Source: Rhodococcus sp. HNM0563 (GTDB lineage: Bacteria > Actinomycetota > Actinomycetes > Mycobacteriales > Mycobacteriaceae). Taken from it: a stretch of 64,000 nt of DNA. The notes beneath the pieces are model-generated. The model was not told where the DNA came from and searched no databases. It worked only from the letters and a program-made list of their open reading frames with translations. Position numbers and translations under genes: made by a program. Below, in pieces: positions 24,101 to 29,800 of the stretch. The DNA lies in contig NZ_JAASAF010000009.1 of assembly GCF_012726195.1 (NCBI RefSeq), positions 1 through 64,000 on the forward strand, given 5' to 3'. Within the stretch, counting starts at the first letter, position 1; every line of letters begins with the position of its first letter.

Positions 24101-26693
24101 TGCCGGCCGAACGGGAGGCGTATGCCGTGACGACGTCGCGCGTCAGTGGACCCATCGAGAAGCCGTCGGCCGCAATGTGATGCAGAACGAGAACCAGCAC
24201 GTGCTGGGTGTCCGACAGTTCGAACAGCCGGACGCGGACCGGCACCGAAGAGGTGACGTCGAAGCCCGCCGAGACGAGTTCGGTGATCTTCTCGACCACG
24301 TCCGACGGGTCGACCGCCACCGGCGACAGGTCAGGAGCGACCTCCGACACCGGCAGCACCCGCTGATACCCGACACCGTCGACATCCGGATACACCGTCC
24401 GCAACGACTCGTGCCGTCCCAGCACATCCGACACCGCAGCCTGCAATGCCGCCACATCCAACGACCCCGACAACCGGATCGCCACCGGAATGTTGTTCAC
24501 CGCAGAATCCGGCTCGAACCGATTCAAGAACCACATCCGCTGCTGCGCCAACGACAACGGCACACGCTCCGGACGCACCTGCGCCACCAACGGCGCACGC
24601 CCGTCACCACCCGCGGCGATCGCGGTGTCGATGAGGGAGGACAGTTCGGCTGCGGTGGGCGCGTCGAAGAATTCGCGGACGTCGATGCGCACCTTGTGAT
24701 CGGCGTTGATTCGCGCCACCACGCGGGTCGCGCTCAGGGAGTTACCACCGAGCTCGAAGAAATCGTCGTCCACACCGAATTTCTCGACACCGAGCGCCTG
24801 CTCGAAAGCCGCGACCACGGCGCGCTCGGTCGGCGTACTCGGTGCGCGGTATTCGCGTGCGAGAGAGCTGAAGTCGGGCTCGGGAAGAGCCTTGCGGTCG
24901 AGCTTTCCGCTTGCACCGAGCGGGAATTCGTCCATCTCGACGAACAGCGACGGCACCATGTAGTCGGGCAGCCGGTGACGTACTGCATCGGCGAGCTCGG
25001 TCCGCTCGATGTGGCTGCCGTCGGTGACCAGGTAGGCGACGAGGTGATCTCCGAGGCCGGGGTCGGAATGCACGACCACCACCGACTGCCGCACACCCGG
25101 ATGATCGAGCAGAGCGGATTCGATCTCGCCGAGTTCGATACGGAGTCCGCGCAGTTTGACCTGGAAGTCTGTCCGGCCGATGTAGACGAGTCGGCCTGCG
25201 TCGTCGAGTACGACAAGGTCGCCGGTGCGGTACATCCGGTCGCCGGGTTCGCCGAAGGGATCAGCGACGAACCGGTCGGAGGTGAGGTCAGGGCGACGGA
25301 GGTAGCCGCGTGCAAGCTGTACACCCGCGAGATACAACTCTCCCTCGACACCCGCGGGTACAGGCCGCAGGCCTTCGTCGAGTACGTACAGACCGGTGTC
25401 GGCCACCGCGTCACCGATCGGCACGACGGTGTTGTCGGCAGCGGTCGCGAAGTAGGTGACGTCGACCGCGGCCTCGGTCGGGCCGTAGAGATTGTGCAGA
25501 CCCGCGGAGCTGATCTCGTAGAAGCGGGCGACTGTCTGTGGCGGCAGAGCTTCACCGGATGCGAAAACGTAGCGCAGGGTGGTCACCGATGCCGCGGTGG
25601 GTTCGGCGAGGTAGACGGAGAGCATCGACGGCACGAAGTGTGCGATGGTCACGCCCCGGTCGATCATCGTCCGGGCGAGGTAGGCGGGGTCGCGATGCCC
25701 GTCCGGGATCGCGATGCAGAGCGTGGCGCCCACCTGGAGGGGCCAGAAGAACTCCCACACCGACACGTCGAACGTGAACGGCGTCTTCTGCAGTACGACG
25801 TCGTCGGCGCGCATCACGTATTCGGACTGGCGCCACGCGATGTTCGCGGTGATCGCACGATGTTCGACCGCCACGCCCTTCGGCCGGCCGGTCGAACCCG
25901 AGGTGAAGATGACGTAGGCGAGGTGGTCGGCGGTCAACGCGCCGGTCCGCTCGTCTTCCCCGATCGGACCGTCGGCGTAGCCGGACACGTCGAGGGTGTC
26001 GATCTCGACGACCGGCACGGTTCCGGGTAGGTCGACGGCATCGCGCGCGGTGGTGACCACCGCGACCGGTTCGGCGATCTCGAGCACATAGGCGCTGCGG
26101 TCGGCGGGGTGATCCGGGTCGAGGGGGACATACGCACCGCCGGCCTTGACGATGGCGTACATACCGATGAGCAGGTCGAAGGATCGGCGGATCGACAGAC
26201 CGACCCGGGTGTCCGGACCGACACCGAGCTCGATGAGGTGACGTGCAAGGCGGTTGGCGCGCGCATCGAACTCTCGATAGGTGAGGGTCTCGCCCTCGAA
26301 CTCGAGCGCTGTGGCATCAGGGGTTGCCGCGACCTGCGCATCGAACCGCGCAACGAGCGTGTGCGGATCGGCTGTCACGGGGGCAGATGCGTCGTCGCCG
26401 AGGACCTCGGATGCATCGGCGAGCAAGGTGTCGACGACTCCCGGCAGGCCGGCACCCCCCAGGAGTCCCGGCGCCACGTTGGACAGCACGACGGGAAGAA
26501 GCGCATCGAAGCCGAGCACACCGCCCATTGCACCGTCGAGAGTGGTGATCTCCTGCTGCAGCCCGGCATAGGTGAGCTGCGTGTCACCATCGGAGAGCGC
26601 GATGCGGTCGGGGTCGACGTCCACAACTGCGGCGAGCAACCGGGGAAGATCCTCGATCGTCAGCGCCGGCTTGCCCGCCATACCACCCGTCAT
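1..26693 (-). CDS. Giant nonribosomal peptide synthetase, modules 7-14, 3' end cut by window edge
   Basis: Second NRPS subunit. The reading frame stays open from the ATG at 26,693 to base 3, at least 8,897 residues, and continues off the window. Order: head domain, A7-T7, four C-A-T modules, C-A-T-E, C-A-T, C-A-T-E (E14 cut). It has no C domain of its own at the N-terminus, so it completes the module begun by the last C domain of the upstream protein. Approximate A domain residues: 111-605, 1170-1658, 2223-2715, 3283-3778, 4347-4840, 5413-5905, 6964-7459, 8027-8519. HHxxxDG is intact in every C and E domain seen. The start is fixed by AGGAGG 9 nt upstream and an in-frame TAG directly before the ATG. 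Frame is conserved at every T motif checked (near 1,017, 8,853 and 15,231), so there is no frameshift. Confidence 0.97.
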   Translation of the reverse strand, partial: MTGGMAGKPALTIEDLPRLLAAVVDVDPDRIALSDGDTQLTYAGLQQEITTLDGAMGGVLGFDALLPVVLSNVAPGLLGGAGLPGVVDTLLADASEVLGDDASAPVTADPHTLVARFDAQVAATPDATALEFEGETLTYREFDARANRLARHLIELGVGPDTRVGLSIRRSFDLLIGMYAIVKAGGAYVPLDPDHPADRSAYVLEIAEPVAVVTTARDAVDLPGTVPVVEIDTLDVSGYADGPIGEDERTGALTADHLAYVIFTSGSTGRPKGVAVEHRAITANIAWRQSEYVMRADDVVLQKTPFTFDVSVWEFFWPLQVGATLCIAIPDGHRDPAYLARTMIDRGVTIAHFVPSMLSVYLAEPTAASVTTLRYVFASGEALPPQTVARFYEISSAGLHNLYGPTEAAVDVTYFATAADNTVVPIGDAVADTGLYVLDEGLRPVPAGVEGELYLAGVQLARGYLRRPDLTSDRFVADPFGEPGDRMYRTGDLVVLDDAGRLVYIGRTDFQVKLRGLRIELGEIESALLDHPGVRQSVVVVHSDPGLGDHLVAYLVTDGSHIERTELADAVRHRLPDYMVPSLFVEMDEFPLGASGKLDRKALPEPDFSSLAREYRAPSTPTERAVVAAFEQALGVEKFGVDDDFFELGGNSLSATRVVARINADHKVRIDVREFFDAPTAAELSSLIDTAIAAGGDGRAPLVAQVRPERVPLSLAQQRMWFLNRFEPDSAVNNIPVAIRLSGSLDVAALQAAVSDVLGRHESLRTVYPDVDGVGYQRVLPVSEVAPDLSPVAVDPSDVVEKITELVSAGFDVTSSVPVRVRLFELSDTQHVLVLVLHHIAADGFSMGPLTRDVVTAYASRSAGNAPAWEPLPVQYADYALWQREVLGSEDDPDSVISSQVAFWRDTLAGAPEQLDLPSDRPRPLVESYRGAAQQFTIGSDLRANIADLARRTGTTDFMVVHAALSVLLARLAGTDDVTIGTPVAGRGEAALDDVVGMFVNTLVLRTRVDGGESFDEVLSRVRGSDLDAFGHADVPFERLVEVLNPERSTARHPLFQVMLAFQNLDVESLELPALTVSALDADTSVAKFDLQVTVSDDAADGYLVDLTYATDLFDASTMTAFADRLVRVLEAVVADRQIVVGDIDLLDADERSLVLERWNDTAHEVESSTLVELFEAQARRSPDAVALEFEGETLTYAQFGSRVNRLARYLVSLGVRPESTVGLAVRRSSDLLVGMYAIATAGGAYVPLDPDQPAERNAYILEAAAPIVVLTTSLDGFTDDGVASVELDALDVSGLSDAPLTDADRLSPLRSPNAAYVLFTSGSTGRPKGVAVSHAAAVNQVLWLTSEYDLGPDDVVLQKTPFTFDVSVWELFGAPAVGARLVIATPDGHRDPAYLARVIRERHVTATSFVPSMLAVFAGAVSREECESLRVVLVAGEAFPVSVAEQFARVSDAELHNLYGPTEATVHATARPVGDLTAGSVPMGAPVWNTGAYVLDERLAPVPAGVVGELYLSGIQVARGYFGRPDLTAERFVASPFQKGARVYRTGDLVRWTSAGELEYLGRSDFQVKLRGLRVELGEVESALLERTPATQAAADVRHEQLVAYVVPAQGDTFDSVGAQEALSSVLPAYMVPTTFVVLDAMPLGTSGKIDRKALPEPIFETRRFRAPTTPIEEIVSGVFADVLDLDRVGLDDDFFALGGNSLIATQVVARLGAALGTTVPVRALFEASGVEDLAARVERAGGDGRVPLVAQVRPERVPLSLAQQRMWFLNRFEPDSAVNNIPVAIRLSGSLDVAALRAAVSDVLGRHESLRTVYPDVDGVGYQRVLPVSEVAPDLSPMAVSESDLVSHLRSLISAGFDVSTTVPIRVRLFELSASEHVLVFVVHHIATDGFSMGPLTRDVVTAYSVRAAGGEPAWEPLPVQYADYALWQREVLGSEDDPDSVLSSQVAFWRDTLAGVPEQLDLPADRPRPVVASNGGAQYEFTIASHTHDGILRLARERAATPFMVVHAALSVLLARLAGTDDVAIGTPVAGRGEAALDDVVGMFVNTLVLRARVDGGESFDEVLSRVRGSDLDAFGHADVPFERLVEVLNPERSTARHPLFQVMLSFQNLAAERVELPELVVSGVDIDTTTAKFDLQFVVTEARDSDGSATYSVGLTYATDLFDESTISGFADRFVRVLDAVVTDSSVAVGDVCLLDADERTRMVEEWNDTDHPSGTSSTLVELFEAQALRTPDAIALEFDGETLTYAQFADRVHRLARHLVALGVGPEAHVGLAIRRSVDLLVGMYAITTAGGAYVPLDPDQPGDRNAYILETAAPVVVLTTEHDGFEAPAPGSAPIVLIDSLDLSGEAAGPLSDAERTARLRASDTAYVIFTSGSTGRPKGVAVTHEAIVNRLHWMQGEYELGPADVVFQKTPFTFDVSVWEFFWPLQTGARLLIAVPDGHRDPRYLVSTMREKSVSVAHFVPSMLAVFAAEPAVSELSALRYIFASGEALPATLAARVRSTLPTVGIHNLYGPTEAAVDVTYHEVTDADTVSVPIGAPVWNTKVFVLDDRLRPVPLGVAGELYLSGVQLARGYVRRPDLTAERFIASPLGSGERLYRTGDLVRWQADGELEYIGRTDFQVKLRGLRIELGEIESALLERDDVFQAVVLVRQEQLVAYVVPASGSTFDDAAVSRDLSSLLPAYMVPATYVVLDALPLGASGKLDRKALPNPVFEVKKFRAPTTMLEEIVAGVFAEVLGVDRIGLDDDFFALGGNSLIATQVVSRIGAALDSTVPLRLLFEASTVECLAARLEHGDAGGPRRPLVASERPAQIPLSLAQQRYWFLNQFDTASSAVDNIPIAVRLLGELDVEALHAAALDVIARHESLRTVYPDSPDGPHQVVIPMDRVEPDLAIQNVTDDELEREIVAFMSTTFDVTQQVPVAVRIFRVREDEHILALVVHHVSADGASVGPLTRDLMRAYAARSQGDAPGWDPLPVQYADYALWQREILGSEDDPESLAARQVDHWKRALDGLPDQLDLPSDRPRPPSQSFRGESLQFSLPPELHGRLQGLARSKNATLFMVINAAFATLLARLSGTDDIAIGTPIAGRGERELDDLIGMFVNTLVFRTRVDGSTSFDELLEQTRESDLGAFANADVPFERLVEVLNPVRSTARNPLFQVGLSFQNLARTELELPGLTVSSTDFELQLAKTDLQLTVFDHYDDDGAPEQIDATFTYATDLFDEPTVDGFAHRFVRILEAVVEDPTIPVGDIELLEPAEKIRTLETWNDTAHEVTSSATLTDLFDVQVRRDPNATAVVFEGESLTYGEFDARVNRLARHLIELGVGPDSTAVLAMRRSVELLVGMYAVAKAGGAYVPVDPAQPAERNAYILDTAAPVALLTTTRDGFTGASGGRPVAVVEIDAVDLSGLSAEPVADAERRAPLRSSNAAYVIFTSGSTGRPKGVTVPHAAVVNQMLWKREYFGLGADDAVLLKTVATFDLSVWEFWSALVSGGRVVIASAEGHRDPAYLNALIADQGVTTLHVVPSMLEALMIESSGKLSSSLRQVLAIGEALPPSTAQRFVASNDARLVNLYGPTEAAVSVTAGEVVEPSGTSVSIGVPEWNTRVYVLDDRLHPVPVGVSGELYLAGVQLARGYHGRVDLTADRFVASPFGSGERLYRTGDLVRFTADGALDYLGRTDFQVKVRGFRIELGEIESALHNVAGVRDVAVVAREDGRVGAQLVAYVVPEPGVVLAVADVKAALAVGLPSYMVPSAFVLLPALPLNANGKLDRKALPEPVFEAREFRAPVSPVEESVAAVFAEVLGIDRVGLDDDFFELGGNSLLATQVASRLSFALGTKVPVRALFETPTVEALAAVVESQDTEIRVPLEAGHRPDRIPLSPAQQRMWFLNRFDTDTAAYNVPMAIRLSGDLDVDALQAAVADVVTRHESLRTYYPESVDGPVQQIVPATEVTPDLRPVRVAEREIIGAVTAVGATTFDVTDEVPLAAKLFQVGDSDYVLAFVVHHISADGSSMGPLTRDLMQAYVARSQGDVPTWEPLPVQYADYAVWQRTVLGSEDDPGSLASKQVDYWKKALDGLPDQLDLPTDRPRPAVQSFHGARADFTVDADLHQRLTDLGRQTNTTLFMVLHTAFAVFLARMSGSDDIAIGTPIAGRAERELDDLIGMFANTLVFRTRVDGRAGFAELLEQTREADLGAFANADVPFERLVEVLNPARSTARHPLFQVGLSFQNLAQSSLELPGLTITGIDADMAISQFDLHLIVTDRYDVDGRAAGITGFFTYATDLFDESTVAEFTDRLTRVLEAVVADAAMPVGDVPLLDQVEKTRILESWNDTAYGVDGDATLVDLFDRQVREDPAATALVFDGGSLTYGDFDACVNQLARRLISMGVEPESTVVLAIRRSVELLVGMYAVAKAGGVYVPVDPDQPDERNAFIVEAAAPAVVLTTERDEFVMPEESSVSTVLIDTADLSEFSTEPVTDADRVMPLRSSNTAYVIFTSGSTGRPKGVAVPHAAIVNQMLWKREHFGLGADDAVLLKTVATFDLSVWEFWSALVSGGRVVIASPEGHRDPAYLNALIAEHGVTTLHVVPSMLEALMIDGDGRLAGSLRRILAIGEALPVATAERFVEHNTARLVNLYGPTEAAVSVTAGEVIAPSGTSVSIGVPEWNTRAFVLDERLNPVPVGVPGELYLAGAQLARGYHGRVDLTAERFVASPFGAGERLYRTGDLVRWTAQGELDYLSRTDFQVKVRGFRIELGEIESALREQDDIREVAVIAREDERTGAQLVAYVVPVAGVELDTAELKTALGSRLPSYMVPAAFMVLDGLPLNVNGKLDRKALPEPVFEVREFRAPRTPVEEIVAGVFADVLGVSRVGVDDDFFELGGNSLLATQVVSRIGTALGARVPVRIVFDSPTVGALAVAAEQHADTDSRTPLVPQSRPDMVPLSLAQQRMWFLNRFDTDSSVNNIPVAVRLTGELDVPALQDAVRDVLVRHEVLRTIYPEIDGRPYQLIVPAAEAAPEVVAEVVTEDDLLARVGEVVSAGFDVTSEIPLRVALFALTDSGSDAENATDHVLAFVAHHISSDGWSMAPLTRDVMTAYVSRAAGEAPAWAPLPVQYADFAIWQREVLGSEDDPESVLSAQAEFWKDTLAGVPDELNLPMDRPRPPVQSFTGGKVEFALDASTHRELAALARRTGTTMFMVLHTALAVFLARMSDSDDITIGTPIAGRGERELDDLIGMFVNTLVLRSHVDTGETFEDLLSRVRTADLDAFAHADIPFERLVDVLEPERSTARHPLFQVVLSFENMPETALELPGLSVSGVPFELDIAKFDLGLTLREHVDAGGDPGGLSAEFSYASALFDHGTVERFAERFTRLVNGILAGTATPVGDLPLLGDEEFAQLTSMRGHDVLTEPKTLADFLTLGVTMDPDATAVRYEGRSITYREIDEASSRLARTLIDRGIGAEDFVAVSFPRSYDMAVTVMAVAKTGAAHVPVDPTYPAERVRYMLSDSGAALGITSSQHATGLPDDAEWLLVDDPDFIAEVDARASTPISDTDRVRPTHVHQPAYLIYTSGSTGQPKGVVVTHSGLAGLKDMVTDLYGVTSESRFLQICSPSFDPSVLEWMAAFSFGATLVIVPSTIIGGPDLAELLRTERVTHTIITPVVLGTMESDGVDSFEVLSVGGDVTTPELLSEWSKRTTYVNAYGPTEATIVSTFGQMVPERPITIGEPIVGMTTLVLDSRLRPVAAGMAGELYVAGRALARGYHRRNALTAERFVPNPYGEAGDRMYRTGDVVRWRAVEDRLELEFVGRSDFQVKVRGFRIELGEIDAVLSTHETVNWATTLGRSTASGATVLVSYVLPAAGRTVDVAGLTEFVARSLPPHMVPSAVVVLDEVPLTPVGKLDRDALPEPVFEEREYRGAGSEVEEIIAEVFAEVLHLEKVSVDESFFALGGDSIVSIQLVSRAKARGVVFTPRDVFERRSVAGLAEVASRVDADAPRKLAELPGGGVGDVPLTPIMREVLGWPGGFDRFSQTIAVNLPQDITADVLERTIGAVVDHHDALRSILDRSDDAATLRIRATGTVDASSLIARVEVAAEISDTDLTEIASRELDSALGRLDPESGSVLQFVWFDFTGDTRPGVLLIVAHHLVMDGVSWRILLPDLGLAWGQIVAGQDVRLAEVGTSLRRWAHGLVEAAPSHRDELELWERILGEPDPLLAHRPFDPAVDVTSTVERIELTLDSRQTEALLTSVPSLFRGGVADGLVAALGLALVRWRRDRGVESSSALVKFEGHGREEAVVPGADLSRTVGWFTSAYPVRVDLSGVDVDDAFAGGVSVGAAVKAVKEQLLAIPDRGMGYGLLRYLDGESSVRLGAVAKSPQISFNYLGRVSGADVPEELAAIGWAPTGALGQVDAALDADMPASAAIDINAIVNDGPEGPQLGANIAFPTGLLDREDVDEFAQHWRAALDALVAHVDAPDAGGLTPSDVPLVNVTQSDLERWESRYRPVADVWPLSPLQSGLLFHALMTADDDVDVYTMQAVLDLEGAVDADRLHRAAQGLLDRHANLRTVFVTDDDGDSVQLVLDNVQVPWRTVDMSSEVASSGVTVTVPFWRDEETRGFVMDTGPLMRFVLVSLGGDRYQLGVTTHHVLVDGWSMPLLMQDLMALYATRGDTSMLPRARSYRSFLEWVGTRDLEASRGAWSHVFDGFDEPTLLAPQSPRHPGAHGDDRVKIELDAQRLTAISDAAARLGVTVNTLVQAAWGVLIGRLTGRDDVVFGATVSGRPADLPGVESMVGLFINTLPVRVSFDPDEPVAEFLGRLQSEQAALLEHHHLGLTDIQRASGPAVAFDTLTVFESYPLDEEGLAQQASSIDGMSVTGVGTHDATHYPLSLFVHVKTGMEVELRYQRALFDRDQVSTLVARFVRALESLAVRPENHVGDIELLDAAELDRILHDWNDSAHELDASALLTDRFDAQAARTPEAVALVYEGDSLTYAEFDARVTRLARHLIAEGVGPESLVGLAIRRSLDLMVGMYAIVRAGGAWVPIDPDHPIDRVRHILDTAEPVCILTTARDEFEVPSDLGIRSIAIDVLDLSNTSSAPVTDVDRIAPLRPDNTAYAIFTSGSTGRPKGVAVTHRAIVNQTEWMLDEFEMTSSDVYFQKTATTFDVSLWGFFMPLSVGARLVIATPEGHRDPAYLSEVIAREQVTITDFVPSMLTVFAAHADAEECRTLRDIFVIGEALPPETIDGVRRIISADIDNLYGPTEAAVSATYWQAPAADSVDVVPIGVPEWNVQAYVLDGRLRPVPVGVPGELYLAGVQLARGYVRRPDLTSDRFVANPYGDSGDRMYRTGDLVTWNEHGELEYIGRTDFQVKFRGQRIELGEIETALLAHDSVNQAAVLVVQTPTGDQLAGYVVPVPGRNIDTGELVEFVSETLPAYMVPSALVVLGEFPLNTSGKLDRKALPAPTFEAREFRAPTTPIEEIVATTFADVLGIERVGLDDDFFALGGNSLIATQLVARLGSALDVRIPVRVLFESSTVHALAAQAEQHAGSTRRAPLVPQQRPDRVPLSLAQQRMWFLNRFDATSSADNLPVAVRLTGALDVDALQAAVRDLLDRHEVLRTIYPEDDGRPYQQILSVDEAMPNLDAVQVDEADLPARILEIVGAGFDVTTQVPLRAVLYRLGRSGSDHVLVFVVHHISADGWSMAPLTRDVMAAYVSRTNGEEPAWAPLPVQYADFALWQREVLGSEDDPESLLSTQAQYWKRALSGIPDELNLPMDRPRPPVQSFAGGRVEFALDASTHRELAALARRTGTTMFMVVHTALAIFLARMSDSDDVAIGTPIAGRGESELDDLIGMFVNTLVLRSRVEAGEPFTDLLARVREIDLEAFAHADIPFERLVEIVEPERSTARHPLFQVALSFENLPSAGLELPELSVAGVPFEVDTAKFDLSLTLREGIGQDGAPAGISAEFSYASALFDHGTVEQFAHRFELLLSGILADPQAPVGDLPLLGGDEFGRLTHVHGDHVGAGGTLADILTAAVTLDPNATAVRYEGRSISYRELDETSSRLARILIGRGVGPEDIVAVSYPRSYGMVLSVWAIAKAGAAHLPVDPTYPVDRVRYMLADSGAVLGITSSNYLDGLPGDSDWIVLDDSTFTSELEGQSALPVGASDRVRPLSLFHPAYVIYTSGSTGRPKGVVVTHQGLGGVVDTAVELYHLRAGHRFLHICSPSFDPSVLEWMAAFTSGATLVIVPSTIIGGPDLAELLRTERVTHTIITPAVLGTMDPTGIDSLEVASVGGDVTTPELLAKWAPGRKYFNGYGPTETTIISSFARLEPGRPITIGHPTHGVSALVLDTRLRPVPEGVAGELYMAGAALARGYHGRSALTAEMFVANPYSPDGSRMYRTGDVVRWRAAEDRLELEFVGRSDFQVKVRGFRIELGEIDAALAAHETVDFAATLGRSTASGATVLVSYVLPAAGRTVDVAGLTEFVARSLPPHMVPSAVVVLDEVPLTPVGKLDRDALPEPVFEEREYRGAGSEVEEIIAEVFAEVLHLEKVSVDESFFALGGDSIVSIQLVSRAKARGVVFTPRDVFERRSVAGLAEVAVRSDESQDLVRLEELPGGGVGDVPLTPIMREVLGWPGGVDRFSQFVSVTLPQDITADVLERTIGAVVDHHDALRSILDRDDAGITFRVRGAGDVEAGSLLTRVEAPADISDEDLTALAGREIDAALGRLDPFAGAMLQFVWFDFGSAGRAGVLAVVAHHLVVDGVSWRILLPDLGLAWGQIVSGQERVELAAVGTSLRRWAHGLVEAAPLHRDELGLWEQILEGPDPLLGERPFDPSVDTASTVERFDVSVPASDTEALLTSVPSLFRGGVADGLVAALGLALVRWRRDRGVESSSA
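905..1318 (-). repeat. Near-identical tract, copy 1 (A14 end to T14)
   Basis: About 414 bases spanning the end of A14, T14 and the start of E14. They match 8,741-9,154 with only a few base changes, silent positions included. Copy 2 is the equivalent part of module 12. Confidence 0.85.
4090..7185 (-). other. NRPS module 13: D-donor-type C, A (code DVWDFILVSK), T
   Basis: Elongation module directly after an E domain. Its C domain has a different opening (VWPLSPLQSGLLFHAL) and active site HHVLVDGW. This is the form expected of a DCL or dual-type C that accepts a D-aminoacyl donor. The A pocket reads DVWDFILVSK, the same as module 1, so the residue at position 1 should recur here. Confidence 0.84.
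7843..7970 (-). repeat. Near-identical E-domain tract, copy 2
   Basis: The equivalent stretch of the module 12 E domain, partner of bases 1-128. Confidence 0.85.
8741..9154 (-). repeat. Near-identical tract, copy 2 (A12 end to T12)
   Basis: Partner of 905-1,318 (offset 7,836). Identity at silent positions points to recent duplication or gene conversion and not to selection on protein alone. Confidence 0.85.
11960..15055 (-). other. NRPS module 11: C, A (code DLWHLILVSK), T
   Basis: Elongation module with the same pocket code as modules 6 and 10. Long stretches of its A domain match module 10 (for example [20 protein letters not shown] in both). The peptide should contain two identical neighbouring residues here. 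Confidence 0.82.
15150..18245 (-). other. NRPS module 10: C, A (code DLWHLILVSK), T
   Basis: Elongation module. [30 protein letters not shown] and [12 protein letters not shown] were checked base by base. The substrate is unknown but the same as modules 6 and 11. The A domains of modules 10 and 11 are nearly the same sequence, which suggests recent duplication or conversion. Confidence 0.82.
18330..21425 (-). other. NRPS module 9: C, A (Ser, DVWHFSLVDK), T
   Basis: Elongation module with the serine code from [27 protein letters not shown] and [12 protein letters not shown]. It is the third predicted Ser of the assembly line. C active site HHIATDG, T motif LGGNS near 18,414-18,428. Confidence 0.85.
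20372..20678 (-). repeat. Near-identical C-domain tract, module 9 copy (second half)
   Basis: Matches 23,516-23,822 at a constant offset of 3,144 with few changes. It covers the C-domain segment encoding the [20 protein letters not shown] region and the upstream GRGEAALDD region. Confidence 0.85.
21181..21467 (-). repeat. Near-identical C-domain tract, module 9 copy (start)
   Basis: Matches 24,325-24,611 (same 3,144 offset) across the first part of the C domain and the preceding linker. Only about four differences are visible. Confidence 0.85.
21510..24570 (-). other. NRPS module 8: C, A (code DVWSLALVHK), T
   Basis: Elongation module. FDVSVWELFG, VTATSFVPSML, VLVAGEAF and [12 protein letters not shown] give DVWSLALVHK, which I do not recognise. 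This code is unique in the window. Its C domain shares two long, almost identical DNA tracts with the C domain of module 9. Confidence 0.8.
23516..23822 (-). repeat. Near-identical C-domain tract, module 8 copy (second half)
   Basis: Partner of 20,372-20,678. The identity stops abruptly at both sides while the alignment stays gap-free, as expected of a gene-conversion patch. Confidence 0.85.
24325..24611 (-). repeat. Near-identical C-domain tract, module 8 copy (start)
   Basis: Partner of 21,181-21,467. Between this patch and the 23.5-kb patch the two C domains diverge clearly (for example around 23,830-24,300). Confidence 0.85.
24655..26362 (-). other. NRPS module 7, A (Ser, DVWHFSLVDK) and T
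   Basis: First catalytic domains of the downstream [31 protein letters not shown] and [12 protein letters not shown] give the serine code. T carries LGGNS near 24,738-24,752. The T domain and its flank (KVRIDVREFFDAPT) differ in style from the other carriers, as if this module had a separate origin. Confidence 0.86.
26391..26660 (-). other. N-terminal head of downstream NRPS, A-domain-like putative docking domain
   Basis: Residues 12-101 of the second NRPS, before the true A7 domain, which starts near residue 111. It reads like an aborted A-domain start (TIEDLPRLL, PDRIALSDGDTQLTY) followed by helix-prone FDALLPVVLSNVAPGLL. It matches the tail of the upstream NRPS position for position. Typical short COM or beta-hairpin docking elements are not visible. 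Docking is my inference. Confidence 0.65.

Positions 26694-29800: not shown

What the first reader, a model, noticed from the sequence alone, without database searches (positions are those of the whole stretch)
26391..27114. Homologous tail-and-head domains at an NRPS protein junction, both built from the start of an adenylation domain
The upstream NRPS ends in 93 residues and the downstream NRPS begins with about 90 residues that align without gaps over at least 67 positions, with about 25 identities by eye (both share DLP, PD, GD, GG, VVL, PG). Each looks like the first 45 residues of an A domain followed by a new helical hydrophobic part, and neither continues into a catalytic A domain. They sit exactly at a C|A split of module 7. 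Known NRPS docking elements are short COM helices or beta-hairpin domains, not paired homologous A-domain stubs. This could be a new docking class in which a duplicated fragment pairs with its own copy after an ancestral gene split.
Basis: partly seen in the sequence, partly recalled or inferred. Interest (0 to 1): 0.85.

Follow-up and report, generated by a model that had tools for sequence, protein, structure and literature searches.

The report
Paired docking stubs joining NRPS halves
Two giant peptide-making enzymes of a Rhodococcus-like bacterium end and begin with matching small domains copied from the start of an adenylation domain, and the same pair recurs in related bacteria where one module is cut in two, which makes it a likely new kind of molecular snap fastener.

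Summary
The last 98 residues of the upstream NRPS (after C7) and residues 7-101 of the downstream NRPS (before A7) are homologous (score 149 against a best of 70 in 2000 shuffles; E 2e-12). Residues ~10-65 of the stub derive from the start of an A domain (97.6%). Pfam has no match. In order and phylum samples, matches fell only in the window's family. 62 distinct tail/head pairs were collected, 60 of them 18-207 nt apart, as C-tail // head-A. Tails and heads form separate clades. In another assembly line a C-stub-A junction is unbroken in G040, with one stub; the matching junction of G038 is broken, with one stub on each side, both of that stub's lineage: a second split with duplication. Best reading: a tail-head heterodimer that replaces the covalent C-A linker. 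New variant of a known kind (NRPS docking domains).

The parts
26836..27129 (-). Tail stub (98 aa, residues 6867-6964 of the upstream NRPS): A-domain-derived, C-terminal partner
26391..26675 (-). Head stub (residues 7-101 of the downstream NRPS): homologous, N-terminal partner
26694..26832 (-). 139-nt spacer between the upstream stop codon and the downstream ATG, with AGGAGG at 26703-26708
   Evidence: read directly; ORF bounds
27175..28560 (-). C domain of module 7, HHxxxDG motif present (HHISADG); Pfam Condensation places it at 27142-28494
   Evidence: own HMM; Pfam model; sequence
24807..26363 (-). A domain of module 7, TSGSTG motif present
   Evidence: own HMM, (811 bits); sequence
26833..47727 (-). 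Upstream NRPS: six modules, C7, tail
3..26693 (-). Downstream NRPS: head, A7-T7 and further modules; runs off the window and the contig

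Best explanation
The two stubs are a docking pair. Each looks like the first alpha1-beta1-beta2-alpha2 part of an A domain with a different, probably helical C-terminal part. Tail and head pair as a pseudo-symmetric heterodimer. This holds C7 (end of protein 1) against A7-T7 (start of protein 2), in place of the covalent C-A linker, so that module 7 works although it is cut in two. 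Shown: homology, position, co-occurrence, an old tail/head divergence, and a second lineage with a split and a stub on both sides. Inferred: direct binding, heterodimer geometry (perhaps alpha2 against alpha2, with tail residue 42 Lys/Arg facing head residue 42 Glu), and the effect on synthesis. Secondary-structure labels are recalled from A-domain structures, not computed.
For: Same genus: 17 of 18 genomes have matches, in all 17 a tail and a head next to each other; the miss is 75% complete. Wider family sample: 83 of 201 genomes have a match. 62 distinct tail/head pairs, 60 of them 18-207 nt apart on one strand (64 before two near-copies were merged). Of 287 stub hits reaching the profile's end, 285 lie directly after C and/or before A. 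Tail and head are separate clades: 96/83 and 100/99. Role-specific positions include opposite charges: residue 42 is Lys/Arg in 54 of 62 tails and Glu in 51 of 62 heads; residue 12 is Glu/Asp in 38 of 62 tails and Arg/Lys in 44 of 62 heads; residue 24 is Arg in 58 of 62 heads and no tail. All 51 heads with Glu42 face a basic tail and all 8 non-basic tails face Gln42. The A domain after the break in G038 is 65% identical to the A domain after internal stub 1 of the unbroken G040 chain and at most 43% to its other eight; both G038 stubs belong to the internal-1 clade, 99/96. Stubs keep about 50% identity across 21 representatives, against 60% for the C and 64% for the A stretch beside them.
Against: Internal copies exist in unsplit chains. 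Several heads have no tail nearby (L062, L063, L154, L156), and the G132 tail is followed by an A-bearing ORF in which no stub was found. The charge covariation rests on 3 changes per side and cannot reach significance; by mutual information it ranks 46th of 9310; two Gln42 heads and one Arg42 head face basic tails. Signature residues could simply be inherited, since both groups are clades. The C domain in front of the G038 break does not single out its counterpart: 52-55% to six of G040's C domains.
Confidence: 0.7

Rival explanations
1. Spacer or scaffold domain of the C-A linker: each stub packs on its own C or A domain (or on a third protein such as an MbtH-like protein) and does not bind its counterpart.
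For: Single stubs sit in C-A linkers of unsplit chains, two per chain in all 21 fetched loci, where no split needs bridging.
Against: In the two unsplit chains mapped whole (G040, G027) only two of the C-A linkers carry a stub; the broken G038 junction carries two stubs where its unbroken counterpart carries one.
Confidence: 0.17
2. Scar of gene fission or fusion inside an A domain, without function.
For: Longer degenerate A-domain remnants (293-317 aa after the C domain) end other NRPS proteins at further C|A ends, in G005 and G008 in the same gene row as the tail/head pair.
Against: About 50% identity kept across genera between variable linkers; tail and head clades with distinct conserved residues.
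Confidence: 0.06
3. Homotypic dimerisation (tail with tail, head with head) that makes the synthetases dimeric, rather than head-to-tail joining.
For: Internal copies share a basic residue 42 (I1 Arg 20 of 20, I2 Lys 20 of 20), so not all copies have an obvious opposite partner.
Against: Like charges at position 42 would disfavour a symmetric dimer (inference); tail and head genes are neighbours in 60 of 62 pairs.
Confidence: 0.07

Closest known systems
COM domains (helix-hand) of NRPSs
   Same: C-terminal donor and N-terminal acceptor at protein junctions of NRPSs
   Different: COM pairs sit at E/C junctions and consist of a helix on a hand formed partly by the C domain (PMC9113145, section 11 read); here the junction is C|A, and both partners are homologous stubs of about 95-98 residues derived from an A domain
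PAX three-helix docking domains
   Same: separate C- and N-terminal elements
   Different: two plus one helices at a PCP/C junction (PMC9113145, section 11); here the partners are homologous to each other
Beta-hairpin docking domains (TubC_N type)
   Same: folded N-terminal docking domain
   Different: binds a short linear tail (recalled; that section was not read); no Pfam model matches either stub up to E 10
NRPS adenylation domain, N-terminal part
   Same: residues ~10-65 are homologous, 97.6%
   Different: ends before the core motifs; not an enzyme

Membership tests
NRPS docking domain pair (functional kind) | complementary elements at the C-terminus of one subunit and the N-terminus of the next | tested here: met
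   62 distinct pairs, 60 of them 18-207 nt apart
NRPS docking domain pair (functional kind) | the two elements bind each other | not testable with these tools
   structure prediction switched off
COM domains | E/C junction, helix donor, acceptor shared with the C domain | tested here: not met
   junction is C|A; the head lies in front of A
PAX docking domains | helix elements at a PCP/C junction | tested here: not met
   C|A junction, partners homologous to each other
Beta-hairpin docking domains (TubC_N) | sequence match to a known model | tested here: not met
   0 Pfam families up to E 10 for either stub; that Pfam holds a TubC_N model is recalled
Catalytic A domain | core motifs and full length | tested here: not met
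   98 and 95 residues, no TSGSTG motif; NCBIfam hits of 10-19 bits, far under their cut-offs

The most novel reading that the evidence does not exclude
The stub is a lineage-specific, general pairing module made from an A-domain start. It works in trans between split subunits, in cis inside unsplit synthetases (internal copies 1 and 2, two modules apart, closing a loop), and, in genera g11 and g19, with free-standing stub proteins encoded beside the synthetase. Gene fission with duplication of the stub is then a repeatable route by which assembly lines are cut inside a module.
Probability: 0.25. Interest if true: 0.8.

Novelty: new variant of a known kind. Interest (0 to 1): 0.68.

Why it matters
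NRPS engineers cut in the C-A linker and rejoin with foreign zippers (the 'type S' approach; seen in a search listing and partly recalled). This would be a natural, evolved fastener for that very cut, with dozens of diverged pairs whose specificity could be tested. It also suggests how a docking pair can arise: by copying a piece of a neighbouring catalytic domain and splitting the gene there, more than once. The unsplit and split versions of one junction give a ready natural comparison.

Tried and rejected
Viral contigs scan with the head: no relatives. Plasmid records with the tail: one weak Nocardia farcinica match over 53 residues (43%, E 2e-5), no annotated features there, not followed further. 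PDB by sequence with the tail: only two NRPS chains at E 0.14 and 0.18. Rejected: chance similarity; frame error or false stop (same split in other genera with variable spacing); membership in a known docking family. Not resolved: whether covariation at residue 42 means contact (phylogeny-corrected test has too few events).

Choices that bear on counts: context counts use only stub hits that reach position 86 of the profile. In one search, 16 odd loci were left out of the tail and head models and scored against them; internal copies then scored 5-23 bits closer to tails, but true tails differ by a median of 58 bits, so this is weak. In one search the tree used 77 chosen rows (A-domain rows, L152 internal 1 and other rows dropped) of the 180; in the wider tree groups were less clean (changes: T 3, H 4, I1 3). 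64 pairs became 62 after merging two near-copies, one of them the same genome twice. Order and phylum searches scored only up to 16 and 12 candidates per genome, and their tallies include the window's own genome, so misses are possible. Alignment A3 put heads on top of tails, so A4 used paired rows plus tails only; neither was folded.

Full report
OBSERVATION. The upstream NRPS (26833-47727, minus strand) carries six A and six T domains, a seventh complete C domain and then a 98-residue tail; the downstream NRPS starts at 26693 with a short lead, residues 7-101 resembling the tail, and a complete A domain. The two stubs align at score 149 against 2000 shuffles with mean 32.4, sd 6.0 and maximum 70, and by BLASTP at 23/66 identities without gaps, E 2e-12. 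In the own genome the tail's best other match is the head, E 4.5e-11; the next is 0.003.

WHAT THE STUBS ARE. A profile of 23 stubs matches a profile of ten of the window's own A-domain starts over 56 columns with 97.6% probability, E 3e-12. The last third of the stub is not aligned. No Pfam family matches either stub up to E 10; NCBIfam gives only weak partial hits of 10-19 bits, mostly to the starts of acyl-CoA synthetases.

DISTRIBUTION. Same genus: 17 of 18 genomes have matches, each of the 17 a neighbouring tail and head; the miss is 75% complete. Family sample: 83 of 201 genomes have a match at E 1e-7. Order sample: 10 of 298, all in the window's family. Phylum sample: 4 of 396, all in the family. 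These tallies include the own genome. Names come from the one scan of public genomes: 24 loci, all titled Rhodococcus or Prescottella. So the stub appears restricted to this family, within the sensitivity stated in Tried and rejected.

CONTEXT. Over the window and 153 fetched loci, many overlapping, own profile HMMs placed 287 stub hits that reach the profile's end: 123 heads before A, 118 tails after C near a stop, 44 internal between C and A, and 2 in small free ORFs. Merged, these give 62 distinct tail/head pairs, 60 of them 18-207 nt apart; the other two are 820 nt (L070) and 10,701 nt (L066, with other genes between) apart. Three loci have a tail without a head (L042 and L103, with a frame break in the head; L074 is G132) and eight have a head without a tail, some of them the same place fetched twice. 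Lone heads stand at the start of other NRPS genes in G058 C23, G004 C140, G052 C18 and G132 C10; the G132 tail that was found is on another contig.

HISTORY. In a tree of 180 rows (175 stubs, 5 A-domain starts) tails and heads form largely separate groups. In a tree of 77 chosen stubs, tails (96/83), heads (100/99) and internal copy 2 (100/99) are each one side of a branch, and internal copy 1 together with the three G038 rows is another (99/96). The tail/head divergence is therefore older than most of the lineages sampled. In unsplit ORFs (about 8,900-11,800 aa, mostly near 11,300) two internal stubs occur in all 21 fetched loci, both in C-A linkers and 2248-2315 residues apart, which is two modules. 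In G038 a junction of the same kind is broken: the A domain after its head is 65% identical to the A domain after internal copy 1 of G040 and at most 43% to G040's eight other A domains, while the C domain before the break does not discriminate (52-55% to six C domains). On each side of the break there is a stub of the copy-1 lineage. This is a second case of a split inside a module with a stub on both sides.

MECHANISM. A docking pair that stands in for the C-A linker accounts for position, adjacency, conservation (about 50% identity across 21 representatives against 60% for C and 64% for A, with variable linkers between) and repeated origin. Tail and head differ at set positions, several of opposite charge: residue 12 (Glu/Asp in 38 of 62 tails; Arg/Lys in 44 of 62 heads), residue 42 (Lys/Arg in 54 of 62 tails; Glu in 51 of 62 heads) and residue 24 (Arg in 58 of 62 heads, no tail). 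All 51 Glu42 heads face basic tails; all 8 non-basic tails face Gln42 heads; two Gln42 heads and one Arg42 head face basic tails. Corrected for kinship, there are 3 changes on either side, none discordant, and the test cannot reach significance. It is suggestive only. Internal copies 1 and 2 both score slightly closer to tails than to heads and are basic at residue 42, so whether they pair with each other is open. In genera g11 and g19, small free stub proteins are encoded beside the unsplit synthetase. Of 30 free-stub rows, many near-identical and two of them L069 and L161, 26 carry Arg or Lys at residue 24, as heads do, but only L069 and L161 carry Glu at residue 42. In seven unsplit genomes of other genera (G022, G040, G065, G075, G091, G188, and G199 upstream side only) the stretches fetched around the gene ends showed no free stub.

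LITERATURE. Ten searches of the held library listed no title or abstract start on a C|A docking pair made of homologous A-domain stubs. I read section 11 of PMC9113145 and passages of PMC11253843 and PMC11433410; in PMC5550956 the six terms sought do not occur. Of the rest I saw listings only. Most subscription papers are not held, so novelty is provisional.

VERDICT. Observation confirmed; interpretation partly supported; likely a new class of NRPS docking domain, restricted to one family as far as sampled, with binding still to be shown.

Noticed in passing
L169 and L171 (own genome C13, C15), L157 (G001), G005 C2 ~1849245-1882000 (L184, L185), G008 (L182): A second kind of C|A end: proteins end with C plus a degenerate A-domain half (293-317 aa after C). 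In G001, G005 and G008 the next protein starts directly with A after an Arg/Pro-rich stretch; in the own genome the contigs end first. Possibly another A-derived docking arrangement.
   Followed up: partly
G027 C2 ~855433, 856506, 895807; L220-L235 in other g11/g19 genomes: Small free-standing stub proteins (frames of 117-420 aa) encoded beside unsplit synthetases with two internal stubs; no Pfam match up to E 1 for the three G027 ones.
   Followed up: partly
L069 5307-5747; L161 5215-5868: Conserved free head-type stub ORF beside a carboxylesterase-like gene (named by eye) in two genomes that also have the tail/head pair; could be a decoy or adaptor.
   Followed up: partly
L062, L063, L154, L156: NRPS genes that start with a head although no tail was found near; in G132 tail and head are on different contigs. 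A shared tail serving two heads is conceivable.
   Followed up: partly
window 48453-63978 (-): Upstream of the NRPS: two AMP-binding synthetase genes, a zinc alcohol dehydrogenase, a transporter, then EutC, aldehyde dehydrogenase, a GAF protein and a GMC oxidoreductase.
   Followed up: no
L238 8001-8159 (Nocardia farcinica NZ_LN868939.1): Weak match of the tail (53 residues, 43%, E 2e-5) in a stretch without listed annotation; not examined further.
   Followed up: no
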